Below the pieces are notes generated by a model. The model was not told the origin of the DNA and ran no database searches. It saw only the letters and a program-made list of their open reading frames with translations. The position numbers and the translations under genes were made by a program. Source: Deltaproteobacteria bacterium (lineage in GTDB: Bacteria; Desulfobacterota; DSM-4660; Desulfatiglandales; Desulfatiglandaceae). From it: a DNA stretch of 5,446 bases. Shown here in pieces: positions 1 to 5,446 of the stretch. The DNA lies in contig QMLZ01000214.1 in the NCBI GenBank assembly GCA_003646995.1, forward strand, positions 1-5,446, in the 5' to 3' direction. Position 1 is the first letter of the stretch; the number at the start of each line of letters is the position of its first letter.

Positions 1-513
1 ACAAAGAAGTATCCTGGTAAGGTATTTGTACGTAGTAAAAAGCGTGTGGGCGAAGAATTTCAACTTATCGTATGCCTGAAGCAGGAGATCCCTTTTTCGG
101 TATTTATCAGTCTTGCCCTGGACTCGCTCAATAAGTTCCTGCACAGCGTCGGCCATCTGCCTGGTGGCCTCCATCAGACTTGCCCCAATCCGGCCTTCCT
201 TGATCTTTTCCTTTGTTTCCTCATCAGGCCGCCTCAGGGCCTTTGCCAGGCCTTCAATCCCATCAAATGGCCCACTTATGTCCACCTCGTGCAGTGGCTT
301 CCCCACAAATCGCCGTCTCACACGAAACACATAGTCCCTTAGGGACTCCAGGCATTGGTCAATCCCATCGGCCAATTTGCCTAAGATAGATTCTTCGCAC
401 AGATATTCCCCGCCCAACTCGATCAACACTGCGTAATCCTTGATCTGGCGTAGCTCTGGCGGTCTTAATTCCAGTACCGTATCTTCGTGGTAATCTTTGT
501 TTTCTCCATCCAT
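1..513 (-). CDS. Hypothetical protein, helix-rich and charged (partial, C-terminus beyond window)
   Basis: The frame is open from the ATG at 513-511 to the left edge, 171 codons with no stop. It begins MDGENKDYHEDTVLELRPPE. I recognise no family. The middle (about residues 85-135) is rich in charged residues and likely helical or coiled-coil, including ALRRPDEETKEKIKEGRIG and RQMADAVQELIERV. The last visible part is more basic and aromatic (KLKFFAHTLFTTYKYL). I see no signal peptide, metal-binding motif or nucleotide-binding motif. The gene starts 33 bases after the peptidase stop in the same direction, with no strong terminator between, so the two are probably cotranscribed. An AAGGA (536-532) lies 18 bases before the ATG, which is too far; an in-frame TTG at 519-517 would sit 12 bases away and add two residues, so the exact start is uncertain. 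Sense-strand coding is supported by the long stop-free frame and its continuity with the neighbouring gene order, not by homology. Confidence 0.7.
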   Translation of the reverse strand, partial: MDGENKDYHEDTVLELRPPELRQIKDYAVLIELGGEYLCEESILGKLADGIDQCLESLRDYVFRVRRRFVGKPLHEVDISGPFDGIEGLAKALRRPDEETKEKIKEGRIGASLMEATRQMADAVQELIERVQGKTDKYRKRDLLLQAYDKLKFFAHTLFTTYKYLTRILLC

Positions 514-546
514 TTGCAATTACTCAAAAAATCCTTCTTGGATAAT

Positions 547-2031
547 TCAAGACCAAATTATACTTCCCCACCTATCCAATAAACACTCAGCTGAGAGCTC
601 CCCTAATGACTTCCGTCTCAGAAAGCCATCCAATTCGTCTCGGCAGCCCTCTGACCACCAGTCCCTTATAAGGTCTGCCGCTTTTGGTTCGAACATCCAC
701 CTCTCCCCGAACTTCTCTCTTAAACTTTTCTCCATCATGGCCTCGCCCATCCATGCCATGACGTATTCAAGGCTATAGAACTCTGGTACCAGGTCGAAGA
801 GGCAGGCCTCGGGCTGATAAAAAAAACCTGTGTAGCGCCTCATAAATTCCGAATACACCTTGCCGGTGCCAAAGTCCCCGGACCGAAACATTTCCACTTC
901 AGAGAGAAATCTTGCACCGTACCTTCTAAACACTGATAGGTCCCGCAAGGCCTTGTACCTGTAAAGCATGTCTGCTATTTGTTCATCGACACCAAGCTGC
1001 TCAACCATAAATGGTACGCTCATGGTCATATTCTGTATTAAGAATGCAAATGCCTCGCTGAGGGCTCCCCCCATGCATATTTCCCGGTGCACAAAAGGCA
1101 AGCGGGGAGAGGTATTTGCTGCAAACAGGGCATGCCCCAATTCGTGTCCTAAGCCTTCCACGTCAATCCACCCGCCCTGAGGCTTCACAAGAACATACAC
1201 CTCATCGGGAACCTCTAGCACAAAGCAGATAGCTTGAGGGCTTTTCTCGGGAGCCTTATCCATCTCAATGGTAATAGAGCGGTTTTCATCCAGGTCTAGA
1301 TCCCAATTGGTAAAGAACCTCCTCAAGCTTTCCAATGCCCCGGGGGGGAATAGGTGATCAAACTCGCTTAGACTGAGCAAGTTGATGGCATCAAAACGAG
1401 TTAGTTCCTTGAGTCCAACACCAAAGCGACTGGAGGCCCAATGTTCCATTGCCTCAAAATACGGTTTGTCTGTCTTGACAAGTATATCCTTAACCTCGCC
1501 ATAATATTTCGTATAGTCGATGCCTTTTTTCGCCTTGCAATAACCGAGATAGTCGGCGAATCCCAAGGAATCTCTCAAGGTCTCCAGCAATATCTCCCAA
1601 AATGTGACTGCAAAAGGTTTCAGGAGTCTACAGAGCGCTCTGGTTTCCCTTTGCAGGATGAGGCGGTCTTCTCTGGTACTGTTTTTCTGGCAGTAGGGTA
1701 TGATCTCTCTGAAGTATATCTTTTGTCCCCTGACGTAGGCTGCAGCCCCCTTCATCCAAGTACGGAGTTCTGCCTCGTAGGGCATTAATTCCATTTGCAA
1801 GAAATGCTCAATAAAATTGAACCGCAGTTTTTTCCCTTCCAAATCTGTACCCAGGATGCCATCCAGGCAACGGTATGTATTCGGGCTCAAAAAGTCTTCG
1901 AAACCTTGGTAGAGAGCTTCAGGGGAAAAGGGGCTTGGAATGCCCTTCCAAAAGCAAAAGGAATGGAGCTTCCATCGATAATTCAGATGGAAAAGAATAT
2001 TCTTGACAGCTTCAAGGGAATAATTTTTCAT
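547..2031 (-). CDS. M3-like zinc metallopeptidase (gluzincin, HExxH), 494 aa
   Basis: A likely cytoplasmic peptidase related to family M3 (oligoendopeptidase F, thimet oligopeptidase). Numbered from the ATG at 2031-2029, the zinc site is HELGH at residues 296-300 (bases 1146-1132) in the context GLGHELGHALF, and the third ligand is probably E326 in ALSEAF, 26 residues after the second histidine, close to M3 spacing. A tyrosine-containing helix (YSLEYVMAWM, near 419-428) sits where M3 enzymes carry substrate-binding tyrosines. The rest is mostly helical, with no signal peptide. At 494 residues it is shorter than typical PepF (about 600) or thimet-type enzymes (about 680). The frame stays open upstream to a TTG at 2157, but that 42-codon extension runs through the terminator hairpin and T-run and looks noncoding, so I start at the ATG after it. 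No good Shine-Dalgarno precedes this ATG. The peptide substrate is unknown, and nothing links it functionally to the redox genes. M32 or another gluzincin family is a less likely alternative. Confidence 0.85.
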   Translation of the reverse strand: MKNYSLEAVKNILFHLNYRWKLHSFCFWKGIPSPFSPEALYQGFEDFLSPNTYRCLDGILGTDLEGKKLRFNFIEHFLQMELMPYEAELRTWMKGAAAYVRGQKIYFREIIPYCQKNSTREDRLILQRETRALCRLLKPFAVTFWEILLETLRDSLGFADYLGYCKAKKGIDYTKYYGEVKDILVKTDKPYFEAMEHWASSRFGVGLKELTRFDAINLLSLSEFDHLFPPGALESLRRFFTNWDLDLDENRSITIEMDKAPEKSPQAICFVLEVPDEVYVLVKPQGGWIDVEGLGHELGHALFAANTSPRLPFVHREICMGGALSEAFAFLIQNMTMSVPFMVEQLGVDEQIADMLYRYKALRDLSVFRRYGARFLSEVEMFRSGDFGTGKVYSEFMRRYTGFFYQPEACLFDLVPEFYSLEYVMAWMGEAMMEKSLREKFGERWMFEPKAADLIRDWWSEGCRDELDGFLRRKSLGELSAECLLDRWGSIIWS

Positions 2032-2080
2032 GGCTGAGTAAACGCCCGCTGAAGAACTCCGGAAACAGGCAGTGCCGTCG

Positions 2081-2122
2081 AAAAAAAATGCCTCTTCGAC
2101 AAGGTATAATATCGAAGAGGCA
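2081..2122 (-). terminator. Rho-independent terminator after the NuoF-GltD fusion gene
   Basis: On the minus strand an 11-bp perfect stem (TGCCTCTTCGA with TCGAAGAGGCA; arms 2122-2112 and 2099-2089) closes a 12-base loop and is followed at once by eight T residues (2088-2081). It begins 38 bases after the TAA of the fusion gene. The plus strand has no T-run after the hairpin, so it should act only on leftward transcription. It separates the redox genes from the peptidase gene. Confidence 0.93.
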
Positions 2123-2160
2123 CGAATAACTCCACACATAAATGCCAGGGTGGCCAAGAA

Positions 2161-5100
2161 TTAAAGCTTCACATCACACCTCAGACATCTACTGCACTCC
2201 CTCATCGCCGTATCCTCATCATAACCGAGCTCTACCTCTACAAAGCTTTTTATCCTTTCCTTGGGGTCCACGGTAGGCATTTTCGCCCTTGGCTGCTTTA
2301 TGATCTCTTCAGGTAGGGCTTGTGTTACCTTGACCTCCGGGAACACCAATTCCGTTGGCTCTTCTCCCCTGAGCTGGGAAAGATACCGGTCAATCTCACG
2401 CGAGGCACGCTTTGCCGCAGCCATGGCGTCCACAATCCTCGCCGGACCGGTTACAGCATCTCCACCGGCGAACACGCCTGGCAGATTGGTGGCAAAAGTC
2501 CGCCTTTCCACGATGATAGTATCTCTACTCGTTCTCAGGCCCCCGCCAAAGCTCAAATCAGGAGCCTGGCCAATAGCTGAAAATATAGTATCATAAGATT
2601 CCTTGATCAAACTTTCCTCTTTAGGTATGGGCCTACGTCTGCCGCTTTCATCGAATTCGCCAAGCTCGCATTCCGCCATCTCCAGCACAAGGCGCCCGTT
2701 GTCCTGTCGAATTGCTTTTGGAGCCACTAGGACCCTCAGTTCGATCCCTTCCTCAATGGCCTCTTCTATCTCCTCCTCGTATGCTGGCATATCCTTTCTT
2801 TCTCTTCTGTAAAGGATCGTGACTTCCTCCGCTCCCAGTCGTTTTGCAGTACGGGCCACGTCAATGGCCACATTGCCTCCACCTATCACCGCCACCTTTT
2901 TACCCACTTTGGGGGCCGTGCCCAGCTCCACCTGGCGTAGGAACTCCGCCCCCTTCAGCACCCCTGGAAGCTCCTCTCCCTCTATCCTGAGGGACAGGCT
3001 GCGGTGTGCACCCACTGCCACAAACACGGCATCATAGTCCTCTTGCAGCTCTTCAAAGCTCACGTCCCTGCCCACTCTAACTCCGGTCTTGGCTTCAACT
3101 CCCAGTCGAAGGATAAAATCGATCTCCTCATCGATTACGTCCCTGGGGAGCCTGAAGGCAGGGATACCATAGCGGAGCATTCCACCTAGTTTAGGGAGTT
3201 CCTCAAAGATGGTGCATTTATACCCCATGAGTGCAAGGTAAAAGGCCGCAGTGAGCCCCCCCGGACCCCCTCCTACTATGGCAACCCGTTGGTCTTTGGG
3301 TTCAGCTTTGGGCAGCCTGGGCGCAAGCCCCAACTTTTTGGCCATGTCGGATGCAAATCTTTTAATCTTTGGAATGGCCAGCGCTTCATCGGTCTGTCCC
3401 CTCAGGCAAAAGGTCATACACGGATGTGCGCAGGCCCTGCCACAAATGGCGGGTAAGGGGTTATCCTTGTAAATCAGAGTTATGGCATCCTCGTAACGAC
3501 CTTCGGCTACAAGTGAAAGGTAGCCGGGAACCTCCTGATCAATGGGACAGGTATTGATACATTTAGCCTTTACTAAATCCGCACAAACTCCTGCCTCGCA
3601 ACGCTTTTCTAAAATATGGTCTTCGTATTCATGGCGAAAATATCGAAGTGTAGAAAGCACCGGATTCGGTGCTGTCTGGCCCAAGCCGCAAAGGGCGGAA
3701 TCCTTGACAAAGGCCGCCAGTGTCTCTAGTTCGGTGAGGTCTTTCATCTCACCCTTTCCCTGGGTAATCCTGTCTAGGATTTCAAGCATTCTCCTGGTTC
3801 CCTCACGGCAGGGTGTACATTTCCCGCATGATTCATCCTGGCAAAAGTCAAGGAAAAATCGCGCCATATCCACCATGCAGGTGGTCTCATCCATTACTAT
3901 CATGCCACCTGAGCCCATGATGGCTCCCACCTTTGCAATTGCCTCGTAATCAGTCGGCGTGTTGAGATACTTGGCGGGCACGCAGCCCCCAGAGGGACCG
4001 CCAAGCTGCACGGCCTTGAATTTTCGGTTGTTAGGTATTCCTCCACCTATTTCATAAATGATTTCTTTCAGAGTCGTACCCATGGGCACTTCCACGAGCC
4101 CTATATTGGCTACCCTGCCACTGAGGGCGAAAACCTTTGTACCTTTACTCCCCTCCGTACCTATGGAAGCGTACCAGTCACCGCCCTTAAGAATTATCTG
4201 GGCTACATTGGCCAAGGTCTCCACGTTGTTGAGTACACTTGGCTTCTTCCACAATCCCTGCTGAGCCGGAAACGGGGGCCTGGGCCTAGGCATCCCCCGT
4301 TTACCCTCGATAGAATGCATGAGGGCTGTCTCTTCACCGCACACAAAGGCTCCTGCTCCTTGATATACCTCCAGGTCAAAATCAAAGCCGCTTCCCAGTA
4401 TGTCTTTGCCGAGCAGTCCATATTCCCTCGCCTGTGCTATGGCAATATCGAGCCTCCTGAGCGCCAGAGGGTACTCCGCCCGGCAATATATGTAGCCCTG
4501 GTGTGCCCCGATGGCCTTGGCTGCTATTATCATCCCCTCCAATACTGCATGGGGGTCGGCCTCCAAAACACTTCTATCCATGAAGGCCCCTGGGTCTCCT
4601 TCGTCGGCATTACAGAGGACATATTTTATCTCTCCCGGCGACTTGCGGGCGAATTCCCACTTGAGCCCTGTTGGAAAACCTGCTCCTCCCCTGCCACGCA
4701 GCCCAGATTTCTTCACTTCCTCTATAATCTGCTCGGGGGTCATCTCCAAGAGCGCCTTGGCAGCACCCATGTAACCGTCTCTGGCAATGTACTCGTCGAT
4801 TACTTCAGGATCTAAGACTCCCCTGTTCTTCAGCACTATCAGCATCTGCCTGGAAAAGAAGGGGATCTCGTCGAGCCTTGGAATGGTTTCGGCTGACGCG
4901 GGTTCCACGTAAAACAACCTTTTTACGGGCCTGCCCTTCAGGAAGTGCTCCTCCACTAGTTCGGGAATATCTTCGGGTGTCAGTTTTTGATAGAAGACAC
5001 CGTCGGGCTGAACCACCATGACAGGACCCTGGGCACAAAACCCGTTGCAACCCGTCTCTATGACCTTGATCTCCTTGCTCAACCCCTTGTTTTCCAATTC

Positions 5101-5190
5101 CCTCAGCAGGACCTCCCTCACCTTATCGCTGCCGGAAGCCTGACAAGCAGTTCCGCTGCATATCAGTAGGTGAGTTCTATATGTGTTCAT
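2161..5190 (-). CDS. nuoF: Fusion flavoprotein: TRX-like [2Fe-2S] + NuoF/HndC (FMN, NADH) + GltD/NfnB-like (FAD, NAD(P)H) oxidoreductase, 1009 aa
   Basis: This is a soluble multi-cofactor pyridine nucleotide oxidoreductase; I see no signal peptide or membrane segment. Domains in order: (a) residues 5-90, thioredoxin-like [2Fe-2S] with C11, C16, C48 and C52; (b) residues 110-525, NuoF core with GRGGAGFPTGLKW (167-179), NADEGDPGAF (194-203), the GAGAFVCGEETAL region (278-290), an SLBB-like stretch (about 352-405), and a [4Fe-4S] site at C455, C458, C461 and C501; (c) a CEAGVC motif (531-536) leading into a GltD-type double [4Fe-4S] region with C544, C548, C583, C587, C591 and C595; (d) residues 635-940, FAD site GGGPGG (640-645), nucleotide site GGGNVA (770-775) followed by YRRERKDMPA (794-803), and FAD-tail motif FAGGDA (907-912); (e) a terminal C-x2-C-x2-C (999, 1002, 1005). 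NuoF or HndC alone is about 420-600 residues and GltD about 450-480, so the length equals both together. The frame is unbroken across the junction. Domain families are certain; the reaction is inferred to be electron transfer among NADH, NADPH and an Fe-S partner, possibly bifurcating. The partner enzyme is not in the window. Confidence 0.95.
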   Translation of the reverse strand: MNTYRTHLLICSGTACQASGSDKVREVLLRELENKGLSKEIKVIETGCNGFCAQGPVMVVQPDGVFYQKLTPEDIPELVEEHFLKGRPVKRLFYVEPASAETIPRLDEIPFFSRQMLIVLKNRGVLDPEVIDEYIARDGYMGAAKALLEMTPEQIIEEVKKSGLRGRGGAGFPTGLKWEFARKSPGEIKYVLCNADEGDPGAFMDRSVLEADPHAVLEGMIIAAKAIGAHQGYIYCRAEYPLALRRLDIAIAQAREYGLLGKDILGSGFDFDLEVYQGAGAFVCGEETALMHSIEGKRGMPRPRPPFPAQQGLWKKPSVLNNVETLANVAQIILKGGDWYASIGTEGSKGTKVFALSGRVANIGLVEVPMGTTLKEIIYEIGGGIPNNRKFKAVQLGGPSGGCVPAKYLNTPTDYEAIAKVGAIMGSGGMIVMDETTCMVDMARFFLDFCQDESCGKCTPCREGTRRMLEILDRITQGKGEMKDLTELETLAAFVKDSALCGLGQTAPNPVLSTLRYFRHEYEDHILEKRCEAGVCADLVKAKCINTCPIDQEVPGYLSLVAEGRYEDAITLIYKDNPLPAICGRACAHPCMTFCLRGQTDEALAIPKIKRFASDMAKKLGLAPRLPKAEPKDQRVAIVGGGPGGLTAAFYLALMGYKCTIFEELPKLGGMLRYGIPAFRLPRDVIDEEIDFILRLGVEAKTGVRVGRDVSFEELQEDYDAVFVAVGAHRSLSLRIEGEELPGVLKGAEFLRQVELGTAPKVGKKVAVIGGGNVAIDVARTAKRLGAEEVTILYRRERKDMPAYEEEIEEAIEEGIELRVLVAPKAIRQDNGRLVLEMAECELGEFDESGRRRPIPKEESLIKESYDTIFSAIGQAPDLSFGGGLRTSRDTIIVERRTFATNLPGVFAGGDAVTGPARIVDAMAAAKRASREIDRYLSQLRGEEPTELVFPEVKVTQALPEEIIKQPRAKMPTVDPKERIKSFVEVELGYDEDTAMRECSRCLRCDVKL

Positions 5191-5266: not shown

Positions 5267-5446
5267 TCAATCCATGCGGGCCAGGGCAAAGTCCGTCTGC
5301 ACTTCCCCCTTCAGAACATGCCTCCTAAAAACCTGCCGCATTTTCTTCGCATCCATGTGCTGATATACAACCGGCTTCTGACCTTGTATCTCTACAGTAA
5401 CATTGGGTTCACTGCTACACATCCCCATGCACCCCGAGGTAATCAC
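5267..5446 (-). CDS. Thioredoxin-like [2Fe-2S] ferredoxin, HndB-like (partial, C-terminal end)
   Basis: The frame is open from the right edge of the window to a TGA at 5269-5267, giving the last 59 residues; the start lies outside. The fragment begins VITSGCMGMC, then SSEPNVTVEIQGQKPVVYQH, and ends in an RRHVLKGEV segment. The C-x3-C pair (fragment residues 6 and 10) matches the second half of the four-cysteine [2Fe-2S] site of thioredoxin-fold ferredoxins; the first pair would lie beyond the edge. Proteins of this type, about 120 residues long, include HndB of the NADP-reducing hydrogenase and are usually encoded just before a NuoF/HndC-like subunit, as here. The inferred role is a cytoplasmic one-electron carrier or electron-transfer subunit of the complex that includes the next gene, 76 bases downstream. 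It is too small for a full NuoE and lacks the NuoE helical N-terminus in what is visible, but the missing half prevents a firm choice. Confidence 0.85.
   Translation of the reverse strand: MITSGCMGMCSSEPNVTVEIQGQKPVVYQHMDAKKMRQVFRRHVLKGEVQTDFALARMD

What the first reader, a model, noticed from the sequence alone, without database searches (positions are those of the whole stretch)
2161..5190. One polypeptide joins two complete flavin/NAD(P) modules (NuoF type and GltD/NfnB type)
Seen: intact NuoF motifs (FMN/NADH loops and the N3-like [4Fe-4S] site) and intact GltD/NfnB motifs (double [4Fe-4S] domain, FAD and NAD(P)H Rossmann sites) in one unbroken 1009-codon frame. Known: NuoF-like HydB/HndC is the NAD(P)-binding flavin subunit of bifurcating hydrogenases, and NfnB, a GltD relative, carries the bifurcating FAD of the NADH-dependent ferredoxin:NADP oxidoreductase. 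Inference: a covalent pair could exchange electrons between NADH, NADPH and a low-potential Fe-S carrier, acting as a soluble transhydrogenase or a bifurcating hub with two nucleotide pools. Homologous fusions may already be present in databases with only domain-level annotation.
Basis: partly seen in the sequence, partly recalled or inferred. Interest (0 to 1): 0.75.

Follow-up and report, generated by a model that had tools for sequence, protein, structure and literature searches.

The report
Bifurcating-enzyme subunit wired to NADP
This gene makes one long protein in which the part of an energy-splitting bacterial enzyme that normally plugs into the small electron carrier ferredoxin appears to have been swapped for a part that plugs into NADP(H), suggesting an overlooked way for anaerobes to couple formate or hydrogen to both NAD and NADP.

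Summary
In detail: window 2161-5190 (-) encodes one unbroken 1009-residue protein joining a NuoF/HydB-type FMN module to a GltD-type FAD/NADP(H) module, behind a thioredoxin-like [2Fe-2S] domain. It is no assembly accident: all 120 listed homologues carry both halves. The sharper finding is where the join lies. The first half is the BfuB (HydB) subunit of bifurcating enzymes and ends just after the ligands of the bifurcation-specific B2 cluster; the ferredoxin-docking 2[4Fe-4S] domain that normally follows is absent and GltD stands in its place. B2 ligands C438, H525, C531 and C536 are in 175 of 175 fusions, a CxxCxxCxxxC motif in 0; the gap from B2 to GltD is 8 residues in 174 of 175. The GltD half has the lysine of the non-bifurcating StnC flavin, not NfnB's glutamate. 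In 41 loci with wide context NuoE is near in 41, formate dehydrogenase in 18, [FeFe] hydrogenase in 14; the closest syntenic relative has a predicted selenocysteine formate dehydrogenase. Best reading: NAD/NADP subunit of a Bfu-like formate dehydrogenase, NADP(H) occupying the ferredoxin port. Catalysis is untested.

The parts
2161..5190 (-). BfuB(HydB/NuoF)::GltD fusion protein, 1009 aa
   Evidence: ORF
4948..5178 (-). aa 5-81, thioredoxin-like [2Fe-2S] domain (BfuB cluster B5; C11, C16, C48, C52)
   Evidence: Pfam PF01257; cysteines
4201..4716 (-). aa 159-330, FMN/NADH-binding domain (Complex1_51K)
   Evidence: bifurcating-type residues A202, M204
3985..4134 (-). aa 353-402, SLBB domain with GGPSG (397-401)
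3616..3870 (-). aa 441-525, N3-like [4Fe-4S] domain (cluster B1: C455, C458, C461, C501)
3583..3618 (-). aa 525-536, B2 [2Fe-2S] ligands H525, C531, C536 (C438 at 3877-3879)
   Evidence: same residue numbers as in 7t2r_B (ligand list from PMC9304861); 175 of 175 fusions
3562..3582 (-). aa 537-543, junction; the place where HydB proteins carry the 2[4Fe-4S] ferredoxin domain
3358..3561 (-). aa 544-611, GltD double-cluster domain: C544, C548 (distal), C587, C591, C595 and K610 (proximal)
   Evidence: the split into distal and proximal is by analogy with StnC and NfnB
2413..3288 (-). aa 635-926, FAD and NADP(H) Rossmann domains (R680; Y794-R795-R796)
2164..2265 (-). aa 976-1009, C-terminal tail with C1002 and C1005, equivalent to the N-terminal ERCLQC tail of NfnB (circularly permuted)
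   Evidence: 5jca_L residues 8-48 match the C-terminal tail, 19.4 bits; weak alone; Fer4_20 profile starts at 18 here but at 1 in a free NfnB-like protein (protein 10)
5267..5446 (-). C-terminal piece of the preceding gene, an HndB-like thioredoxin-fold ferredoxin
   Evidence: 40% identity over 58 residues to the L183 gene; the name HndB is recalled
547..2157 (-). downstream peptidase-like gene (HELGH motif), conserved in the same place in L183; likely start near 2031

Best explanation
The protein is the nucleotide-binding subunit of a soluble, HydABC-like (Bfu-like) complex, most likely a formate dehydrogenase in this organism. FMN in the first half exchanges a hydride with NAD(H). The bifurcation machinery of BfuB is kept (B1, and B2 with its histidine; the NuoE partner is encoded nearby in relatives), but the domain that hands low-potential electrons to ferredoxin is replaced by a StnC-like GltD module, so that the same outlet leads through two [4Fe-4S] clusters to FAD and NADP(H). 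Formate (or H2 in relatives) enters through the BfuA subunit. Proposed net reaction, reversible: 2 formate + NAD+ + NADP+ = 2 CO2 + NADH + NADPH, with no need for ferredoxin. Shown: architecture, ligand conservation, gene context in relatives, repeated exchange of the C-terminal module on the tree. Inferred: electron path, partner formate dehydrogenase in the window's own genome, coupling.
For: Colinear with BfuB to residue 542, then GltD. B2 ligands 175 of 175, CxxCxxCxxxC motif 0 of 175, K610 in 174 of 175 (K610 = StnC K170, NfnL E126). B2-to-GltD gap of 8 residues in 174 of 175, against 12-13 to the next cysteine in 50 of 53 unfused proteins. Structural alignment of the model to StnB chains 9bp5_B and 8oh5_B runs to model residue 607 and StnB residue 581/580, into the ferredoxin domain. 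Of 41 loci: NuoE 41; formate dehydrogenase 18, [FeFe] hydrogenase 14, HdrA-like 1, none 8. Closest relative with wide context, L183: FdhA with in-frame TGA and SECIS_3 match (below Rfam's gathering score), NuoE, HndB, fusion, then the same two downstream genes as the window. Tree: at least 5 switches between GltD and ferredoxin C-termini, 0 of 200 bootstrap trees with one. Three of four residue markers of Losey et al. (A202, M204, GGPSG) are met.
Against: No activity, complex or distance has been measured. Eight of 41 loci have no adjacent BfuA, among them L001 of the window's clade. The window's own upstream genes are cut off. NADPH (about -370 mV, recalled) is less reducing than ferredoxin, so strict bifurcation is not thermodynamically required. 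Losey's fourth marker (Phe at T. maritima 367) could not be placed; the nearby residue 340 is Tyr, as in StnB. One B1 cysteine (C461) is Gly in 9 of 175 fusions, and B5 cysteines C48 and C52 are kept in only 131 each.
Confidence: 0.6

Rival explanations
1. Uncoupled dual-pool diaphorase: formate or H2 electrons flow downhill to either NAD+ or NADP+, without bifurcation.
For: NADP+ and NAD+ are both accessible to formate or H2 without ferredoxin; with NADH -280 and NADPH -370 mV the mean is -325 mV, the potential of H2 at 1e-3 atm.
Against: The bifurcation-type B2 site, including the histidine reported absent from non-bifurcating homologues (PMC9304861), is invariant in 175 of 175.
Confidence: 0.25
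2. Ferredoxin is still a substrate: NADP(H) acts as in Stn, and ferredoxin docks elsewhere, for example at the GltD distal cluster as in NfnAB or at the BfuA side.
For: GltD half closest to the GltD part of Stn-type enzymes; NfnA- and NfnB-like genes follow the fusion in L127, so ferredoxin/NADP chemistry is nearby.
Against: The known ferredoxin-docking domain of BfuB is missing in 175 of 175 and the GltD cluster domain is tethered 8 residues from B2.
Confidence: 0.2
3. Stand-alone NADH/NADPH transhydrogenase or hub without a third enzyme.
For: 8 of 41 loci with wide context have no adjacent BfuA by my cut, among them L001 of the window's clade.
Against: 33 of 41 have one; the closest relative with wide context has one. 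A BfuA-type motif (PF10588) is found in 9 of 9 fusion genomes searched: in G005 beside NiFe-hydrogenase genes on a 15-kb contig without BfuB, in G002 and G003 in formate dehydrogenase genes on contigs of only 4.5 and 3.9 kb, in G001 beside its second fusion.
Confidence: 0.1
4. The GltD flavin is a second, NfnB-type bifurcating flavin, giving a double bifurcator.
For: Same fold; the arginine equivalent to StnC R239 (NfnB R201 in PMC10482914) is kept (R680, 174 of 175).
Against: Proximal-cluster ligand is Lys as in StnC, whose FAD was judged non-bifurcating (PMC10482914), not Glu as in NfnL; no NfnA partner is fused.
Confidence: 0.07

Closest known systems
Bfu family / HydABC, BfuB subunit (Schut et al. 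2022, PMC9304861)
   Same: Same BfuB fold, FMN domain, B1, B2 with His, thioredoxin-like B5 domain; NuoE (BfuC) and BfuA-type FDH or HydA genes in relatives.
   Different: Lacks the C-terminal 2[4Fe-4S] ferredoxin domain (B3/B4) that is part of their BfuB definition; GltD stands there instead.
Stn / Nfn-Bfu transhydrogenase (StnABC, PMC10482914, PMC7483475)
   Same: Contains a HydB-like FMN module and a StnC-like GltD module with Lys ligand; links NAD and NADP.
   Different: In Stn the GltD module is in the BfuA (NuoG-like) subunit and feeds B1, and StnB keeps its ferredoxin domain; here GltD is fused to BfuB itself.
NfnAB
   Same: NfnB-type double-cluster, FAD and NADP(H) fold.
   Different: Lys instead of Glu ligand, circularly permuted tail, no NfnA fused.
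HdrA-NfnB insertions of ANME-1 archaea (PMC9012536, passages)
   Same: An NfnB-like module inserted into the ferredoxin domain of another bifurcating subunit.
   Different: Host protein is HdrA, not BfuB; archaeal.
HydDB [FeFe] group A2 'glutamate synthase-linked' (PMC5037454, passages)
   Same: Hydrogenase with a GltD-like neighbour.
   Different: HydDB's rule gives A2 only if GltD is found without NuoF downstream; a fusion neighbour would, I infer, be read as A3 (NAD/ferredoxin).
NCBIfam NF009410 (PRK12771, NAD(P)-binding protein) and NF010120 (NuoF)
   Same: NF009410 positions 5-511 of 566 align to fusion residues 496-1005, across the junction (506.9 bits, cut-off 516); NF010120 NuoF is passed (406.7 bits, cut-off 389).
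   Different: Each covers only about half of the protein; neither names the fusion.

Membership tests
Bfu family (BfuB as defined in PMC9304861) | Complex1_51K, SLBB and NADH_4Fe-4S domains | tested here: met
   (Pfam equivalents; InterPro itself not run)
Bfu family (BfuB as defined in PMC9304861) | C-terminal 4Fe-4S ferredoxin-type domain (IPR017896; clusters B3, B4) | tested here: not met
   no ferredoxin-type Fer4 domain among the 14 Pfam families (only Fer4_20, the GltD/DPD domain); CxxCxxCxxxC in 0 of 175 fusions
Bfu family (BfuB as defined in PMC9304861) | B2 cluster ligands including His525 | tested here: met
   C438, H525, C531, C536 in 175 of 175; position 476 T 116, C 34, S 18, other 7
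Bfu family (BfuB as defined in PMC9304861) | BfuC (NuoE) encoded with it | tested here: met
   within 4.5 kb in 41 of 41 loci with at least 3 kb on both sides; in the window itself not seen (cut off)
Bfu family (BfuB as defined in PMC9304861) | Electron bifurcation to NAD+ and ferredoxin | not testable with these tools
   needs purified enzyme
Bifurcating versus non-bifurcating beta subunits (Losey et al. 2020, PMC7311640) | Ala/Glu at 232, Met at 234, GGPSG at 427-431 (T. maritima numbering) | tested here: met
   A202 175 of 175, M204 174 of 175, G397-G398-P399-G401 175 of 175 and S400 174 of 175
Bifurcating versus non-bifurcating beta subunits (Losey et al. 2020, PMC7311640) | Phe at 367 | tested here: inconclusive
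   position could not be placed; nearby residue 340 is Tyr in the window, in 51 of 66 fusions and 33 of 66 unfused, and Tyr in StnB but Phe in the four other chains shown
Stn / Nfn-Bfu | Lys ligand of proximal GltD cluster (StnC K170) | tested here: met
   K610 in 174 of 175
Stn / Nfn-Bfu | GltD inside a NuoG-like BfuA subunit | tested here: not met
   GltD is in the BfuB chain
NfnAB | Glu ligand of proximal cluster in NfnB | tested here: not met
   Lys at 610; NfnL has E126
NfnAB | NfnA subunit | tested here: inconclusive
   NfnA-like gene near the fusion in L127 and L129; not systematically searched

The most novel reading that the evidence does not exclude
A widespread class of electron-bifurcating formate dehydrogenases and hydrogenases that does not use ferredoxin: the conserved HydBC bifurcation core has its low-potential outlet hard-wired, by domain replacement, to an NADP(H) module. 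This would break the rule that the BfuBC core always couples NAD(H) to ferredoxin, and show that the outlet is an exchangeable socket swapped several times in evolution.
Probability: 0.33. Interest if true: 0.8.

Novelty: new variant of a known kind. Interest (0 to 1): 0.6.

Why it matters
The published survey of the Bfu family defines BfuB by a ferredoxin-type domain, so these fusions should fall outside it, and HydDB's rule would, I infer, label their hydrogenase partners as ferredoxin/NAD bifurcating. Yet 93 of 395 sampled genomes of one phylum (that of L001, titled Deltaproteobacteria) have a junction match in an open frame of 950 or more residues (counted; frame length is a proxy). If NADP(H) really replaces ferredoxin, energy budgets of anaerobes that rest on 'bifurcating' annotation need revising (break-even moves from about -390 to about -325 mV), and a natural set of swapped proteins would let one test how the FMN/B2 bifurcation site depends on its outlet.

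Tried and rejected
Search of the window's own genome: none is held. A single origin of the fusion: not supported by the trees; one search warns of long branches that meet, and the 41 rows (of 133) were picked by hand to hold the closest unfused rows. Stand-alone transhydrogenase: not favoured, see rivals. Losey's fourth residue: left inconclusive. The VIA list is filled by the NuoF half; the GltD half was judged from row 7 and rows 13, 18, 19, 25. Literature: 10 searches and parts of 9 papers; nothing that I read describes a NuoF-GltD fusion; the library lacks most subscription journals, so prior description cannot be excluded.

Rows dropped or limited: one search counts 120 listed proteins plus 55 locus ORFs, with possible overlap between the sets and some truncated at contig ends. 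The loci are best hits of searches, not a random sample, and several come from one genome (for example L001 and L165). One search counts 41 of 68 fusions (27 had under 3 kb on a side); its 'none' includes L153, whose neighbour matches the FDH reference at 54 bits, under my cut of 60; in L048 the nearest hydrogenase follows a second, unfused BfuB and may belong to that. One search kept 66 of 68 fusions. L190 (masked N stretch) was left out. The 395-genome count uses only listed rows with E up to 5e-38 (123 rows, 101 genomes), from a list that was itself cut off. Contig ends limit the 'orphan' BfuA genes of G002 and G003, and L002 has only 110 bases before its fusion.
Full report
WHAT IS THERE. 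The minus-strand frame 2161-5190 is a single 1009-residue ORF. Pfam gives, in order, a thioredoxin-like [2Fe-2S] domain, the Nuo51 FMN domain, SLBB, the N3-type [4Fe-4S] domain, the GltD double-cluster domain and a pyridine-nucleotide/FAD oxidoreductase. In NCBIfam it passes one NuoF model (NF010120, 406.7 against 389) and falls short of another (TIGR01959, 517.7 against 558.65) and of PRK12771 (506.9 against 516). The AlphaFold2 model, from a 52-row alignment, has mean pLDDT 89.5 and pTM 0.85.

THE JOIN. By sequence, residues 2-542 match BfuB of the NiFe-Bfu hydrogenase 7t2r_B with identical numbering at both ends and no gap shown, and residues 542-1006 match the GltD part of Stn-type subunits (9bov_A, 8oh5_C; 9n5u_A in two pieces). 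Schut et al. (PMC9304861; abstract, section 4 part 1, section 5 parts 1-2, section 6 part 1 read; [quoted passage not shown] the window has C438, T476, H525, C531, C536. The next stretch in ordinary BfuB is a 2[4Fe-4S] ferredoxin domain, clusters B3 and B4, proposed to hand electrons to ferredoxin. In the fusion it is missing and the GltD cluster domain begins instead.

CONSERVATION. Among 175 fusion proteins (the 120 listed homologues and 55 ORFs from loci), C438, H525, C531 and C536 are present in 175, a CxxCxxCxxxC motif in 0, C544, C548, C587, C591 and C595 in 175, C1002 and C1005 in 171, K610 in 174 and R680 in 174; C455, C458 and C501 in 175 and C461 in 166. B5 is less strict: C11 165, C16 161, C48 and C52 131 each. 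The spacing C536 to C544 is 8 in 174 of 175 (one not measured); in 53 unfused proteins the distance from the last B2 cysteine to the next cysteine is 13 in 41, 12 in 9, 40 in 1 and not measured in 2.

THE GltD HALF. K610 aligns with StnC K170 and with NfnL E126; R680 with StnC R239. Kumar et al. (PMC10482914; abstract, results parts 1-2 of 3 and discussion read) report that the StnC flavin is non-bifurcating and that K170 ligates the proximal cluster in one state. The ERCLQC tail that starts NfnB matches the C-terminal tail of the fusion (19.4 bits), so the distal cluster is probably made of C544, C548, C1002 and C1005 (inference). Tyr-Arg-Arg at 794-796 is kept in 170-171 of 175; that it selects NADP(H) is recalled, not tested.

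NEIGHBOURS. Of the 80 best relatives fetched from genome contigs, 16 are fusions, in records titled Deltaproteobacteria, Syntrophobacterales, Syntrophaceae, Desulfobacterales, Candidatus Kuenenia, Dehalococcoidales, Gemmatimonadales, Gemmatimonadetes, Planctomycetaceae and Candidatus Atribacteria. Of 68 fusions with context, 41 have at least 3 kb on both sides; NuoE lies within 4.5 kb in 41 of 41, an HndB-like ferredoxin in 34, and the nearest catalytic partner is formate dehydrogenase in 18, [FeFe] hydrogenase in 14, HdrA-like in 1, none in 8. Types rest on similarity to reference ORFs whose Pfam domains were checked (L018, L004, L012, with L009 and L183 as further examples). A BfuA-type motif occurs somewhere in 9 of 9 fusion genomes searched, adjacent ones counted: for instance a formate dehydrogenase beside a formate/nitrite transporter in G002, two formate dehydrogenase stretches on a 3.9-kb contig in G003, and BfuA next to NiFe-hydrogenase genes in G005; the G002 and G003 contigs are too short to exclude a BfuB next door. 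The [FeFe] catalytic domain was not found in 6 of 9 genomes (completeness unknown); G001 has two weak matches in 440-443 aa frames.

THE WINDOW'S CLOSEST KIN. G424 is 95% and G423 89% identical across the junction; the G424 contig is too short for context. G423 (locus L183) keeps the window's downstream genes (peptidase-like 58%, next protein 57%, fusion 86% over 907 residues) and upstream has FdhA interrupted by an in-frame TGA at CARL-U-HS, with a SECIS_3 match (E 3.5e-9, 47.7 bits, below Rfam's gathering score of 63), then NuoE and an HndB-like gene 40% identical to the window's upstream piece. Its fusion lacks the N-terminal thioredoxin-like domain. Other kin (L001, L186, L189) have regulatory-type genes (my labels DRTGG, PHP, HATPase; PHP and HATPase confirmed by Pfam on representatives, DRTGG recalled) and no formate dehydrogenase in view. 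The window ends inside the HndB-like gene, so its own partner is not seen.

EVOLUTION. In a tree of the BfuB part, fusion and unfused rows need 14 changes of state, at least 8 forced by starred branches (quick method, 133 rows, with long-branch warnings). A careful tree of 41 hand-picked rows needs 7, at least 5 forced, and 0 of 200 bootstrap trees have one. For example L019 and L020 (ferredoxin tail, beside FDH) fall in one starred group (100/95) with L018 (GltD tail, beside FDH) and L129. Partner enzymes change as well (L141 none and L147 hydrogenase are sisters, 96/92). This fits a socket that accepts either a ferredoxin-docking or an NADP(H) module.

HOW IT PROBABLY WORKS. Formate or H2 reduces BfuA; electrons reach FMN through B1; one branch makes NADH at FMN; the other passes by way of NuoE's cluster and B2 to the GltD clusters, FAD and NADP+. 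The first steps follow published Bfu/Stn proposals; the last step is inference from the anatomy. With NADH -280 and ferredoxin -500 mV (PMC9304861 abstract) and NADPH -370 mV (recalled), break-even for the pair is about -325 mV, H2 near 1e-3 atm, instead of -390 mV. Whether coupling is strict cannot be told from sequence.

WHAT IS KNOWN. Nearest: Stn, where GltD is in the BfuA subunit; ANME-1 HdrA with an NfnB-like insertion in its ferredoxin domain (PMC9012536, passages); HydDB group A2 (PMC5037454, passages). PMC7311640 (abstract, passages, section 17) separates bifurcating from non-bifurcating beta subunits; three of its four residue markers are met, one is open. Passages of PMC7483475, PMC8097209, PMC6349859 and PMC5736913 (abstract of PMC7483475) do not describe this fusion. 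By the published definition the protein is not a BfuB, because the ferredoxin domain is missing; it works, I think, like one.

VERDICT. A real, common, apparently undescribed variant of the Bfu flavin subunit; interest 0.6.

Noticed in passing
L130, L132, L133, L137, L138, L139, L143: Tandem units NuoE - short BfuB (526-527 aa, ends before the B2 cysteines, no cysteines seen at the thioredoxin-like site) - HydA, then NuoE - fusion - HydA: a degenerate and a GltD-bearing Bfu unit side by side (Pfam of the L130 one).
   Followed up: partly
L013 6125-7761; ends of L015 and L016: Close unfused BfuB proteins (with ferredoxin domain) are followed by a polyferredoxin (RnfB-like start by eye) that in L013 and L016 runs into a GltD module, as if the same link were made through a separate protein.
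   Followed up: partly
L127 313-2630: NfnA- and NfnB-like genes start about 20 bases downstream of the fusion on the same strand.
   Followed up: partly
L012 7296-10655: A BfuA-like Fer2_4 domain joined to an HdrA-like flavoprotein (my label) beside the fusion in a Gemmatimonadales MAG.
   Followed up: no
L183 8529-11264; P0002, P0020: A 911-aa form of the fusion; in L183, a close relative of the window, it lacks the N-terminal thioredoxin-like domain.
   Followed up: no
window 1-519 (-) and 547-2157 (-): Two downstream genes without Pfam match (a peptidase-like protein with HELGH and an unnamed protein) are conserved behind the fusion in L183.
   Followed up: partly
L157 1-3431 (-): A 1143-aa frame with matches to the BfuA N-terminus, GltD and the [FeFe] hydrogenase domain.
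   Followed up: no
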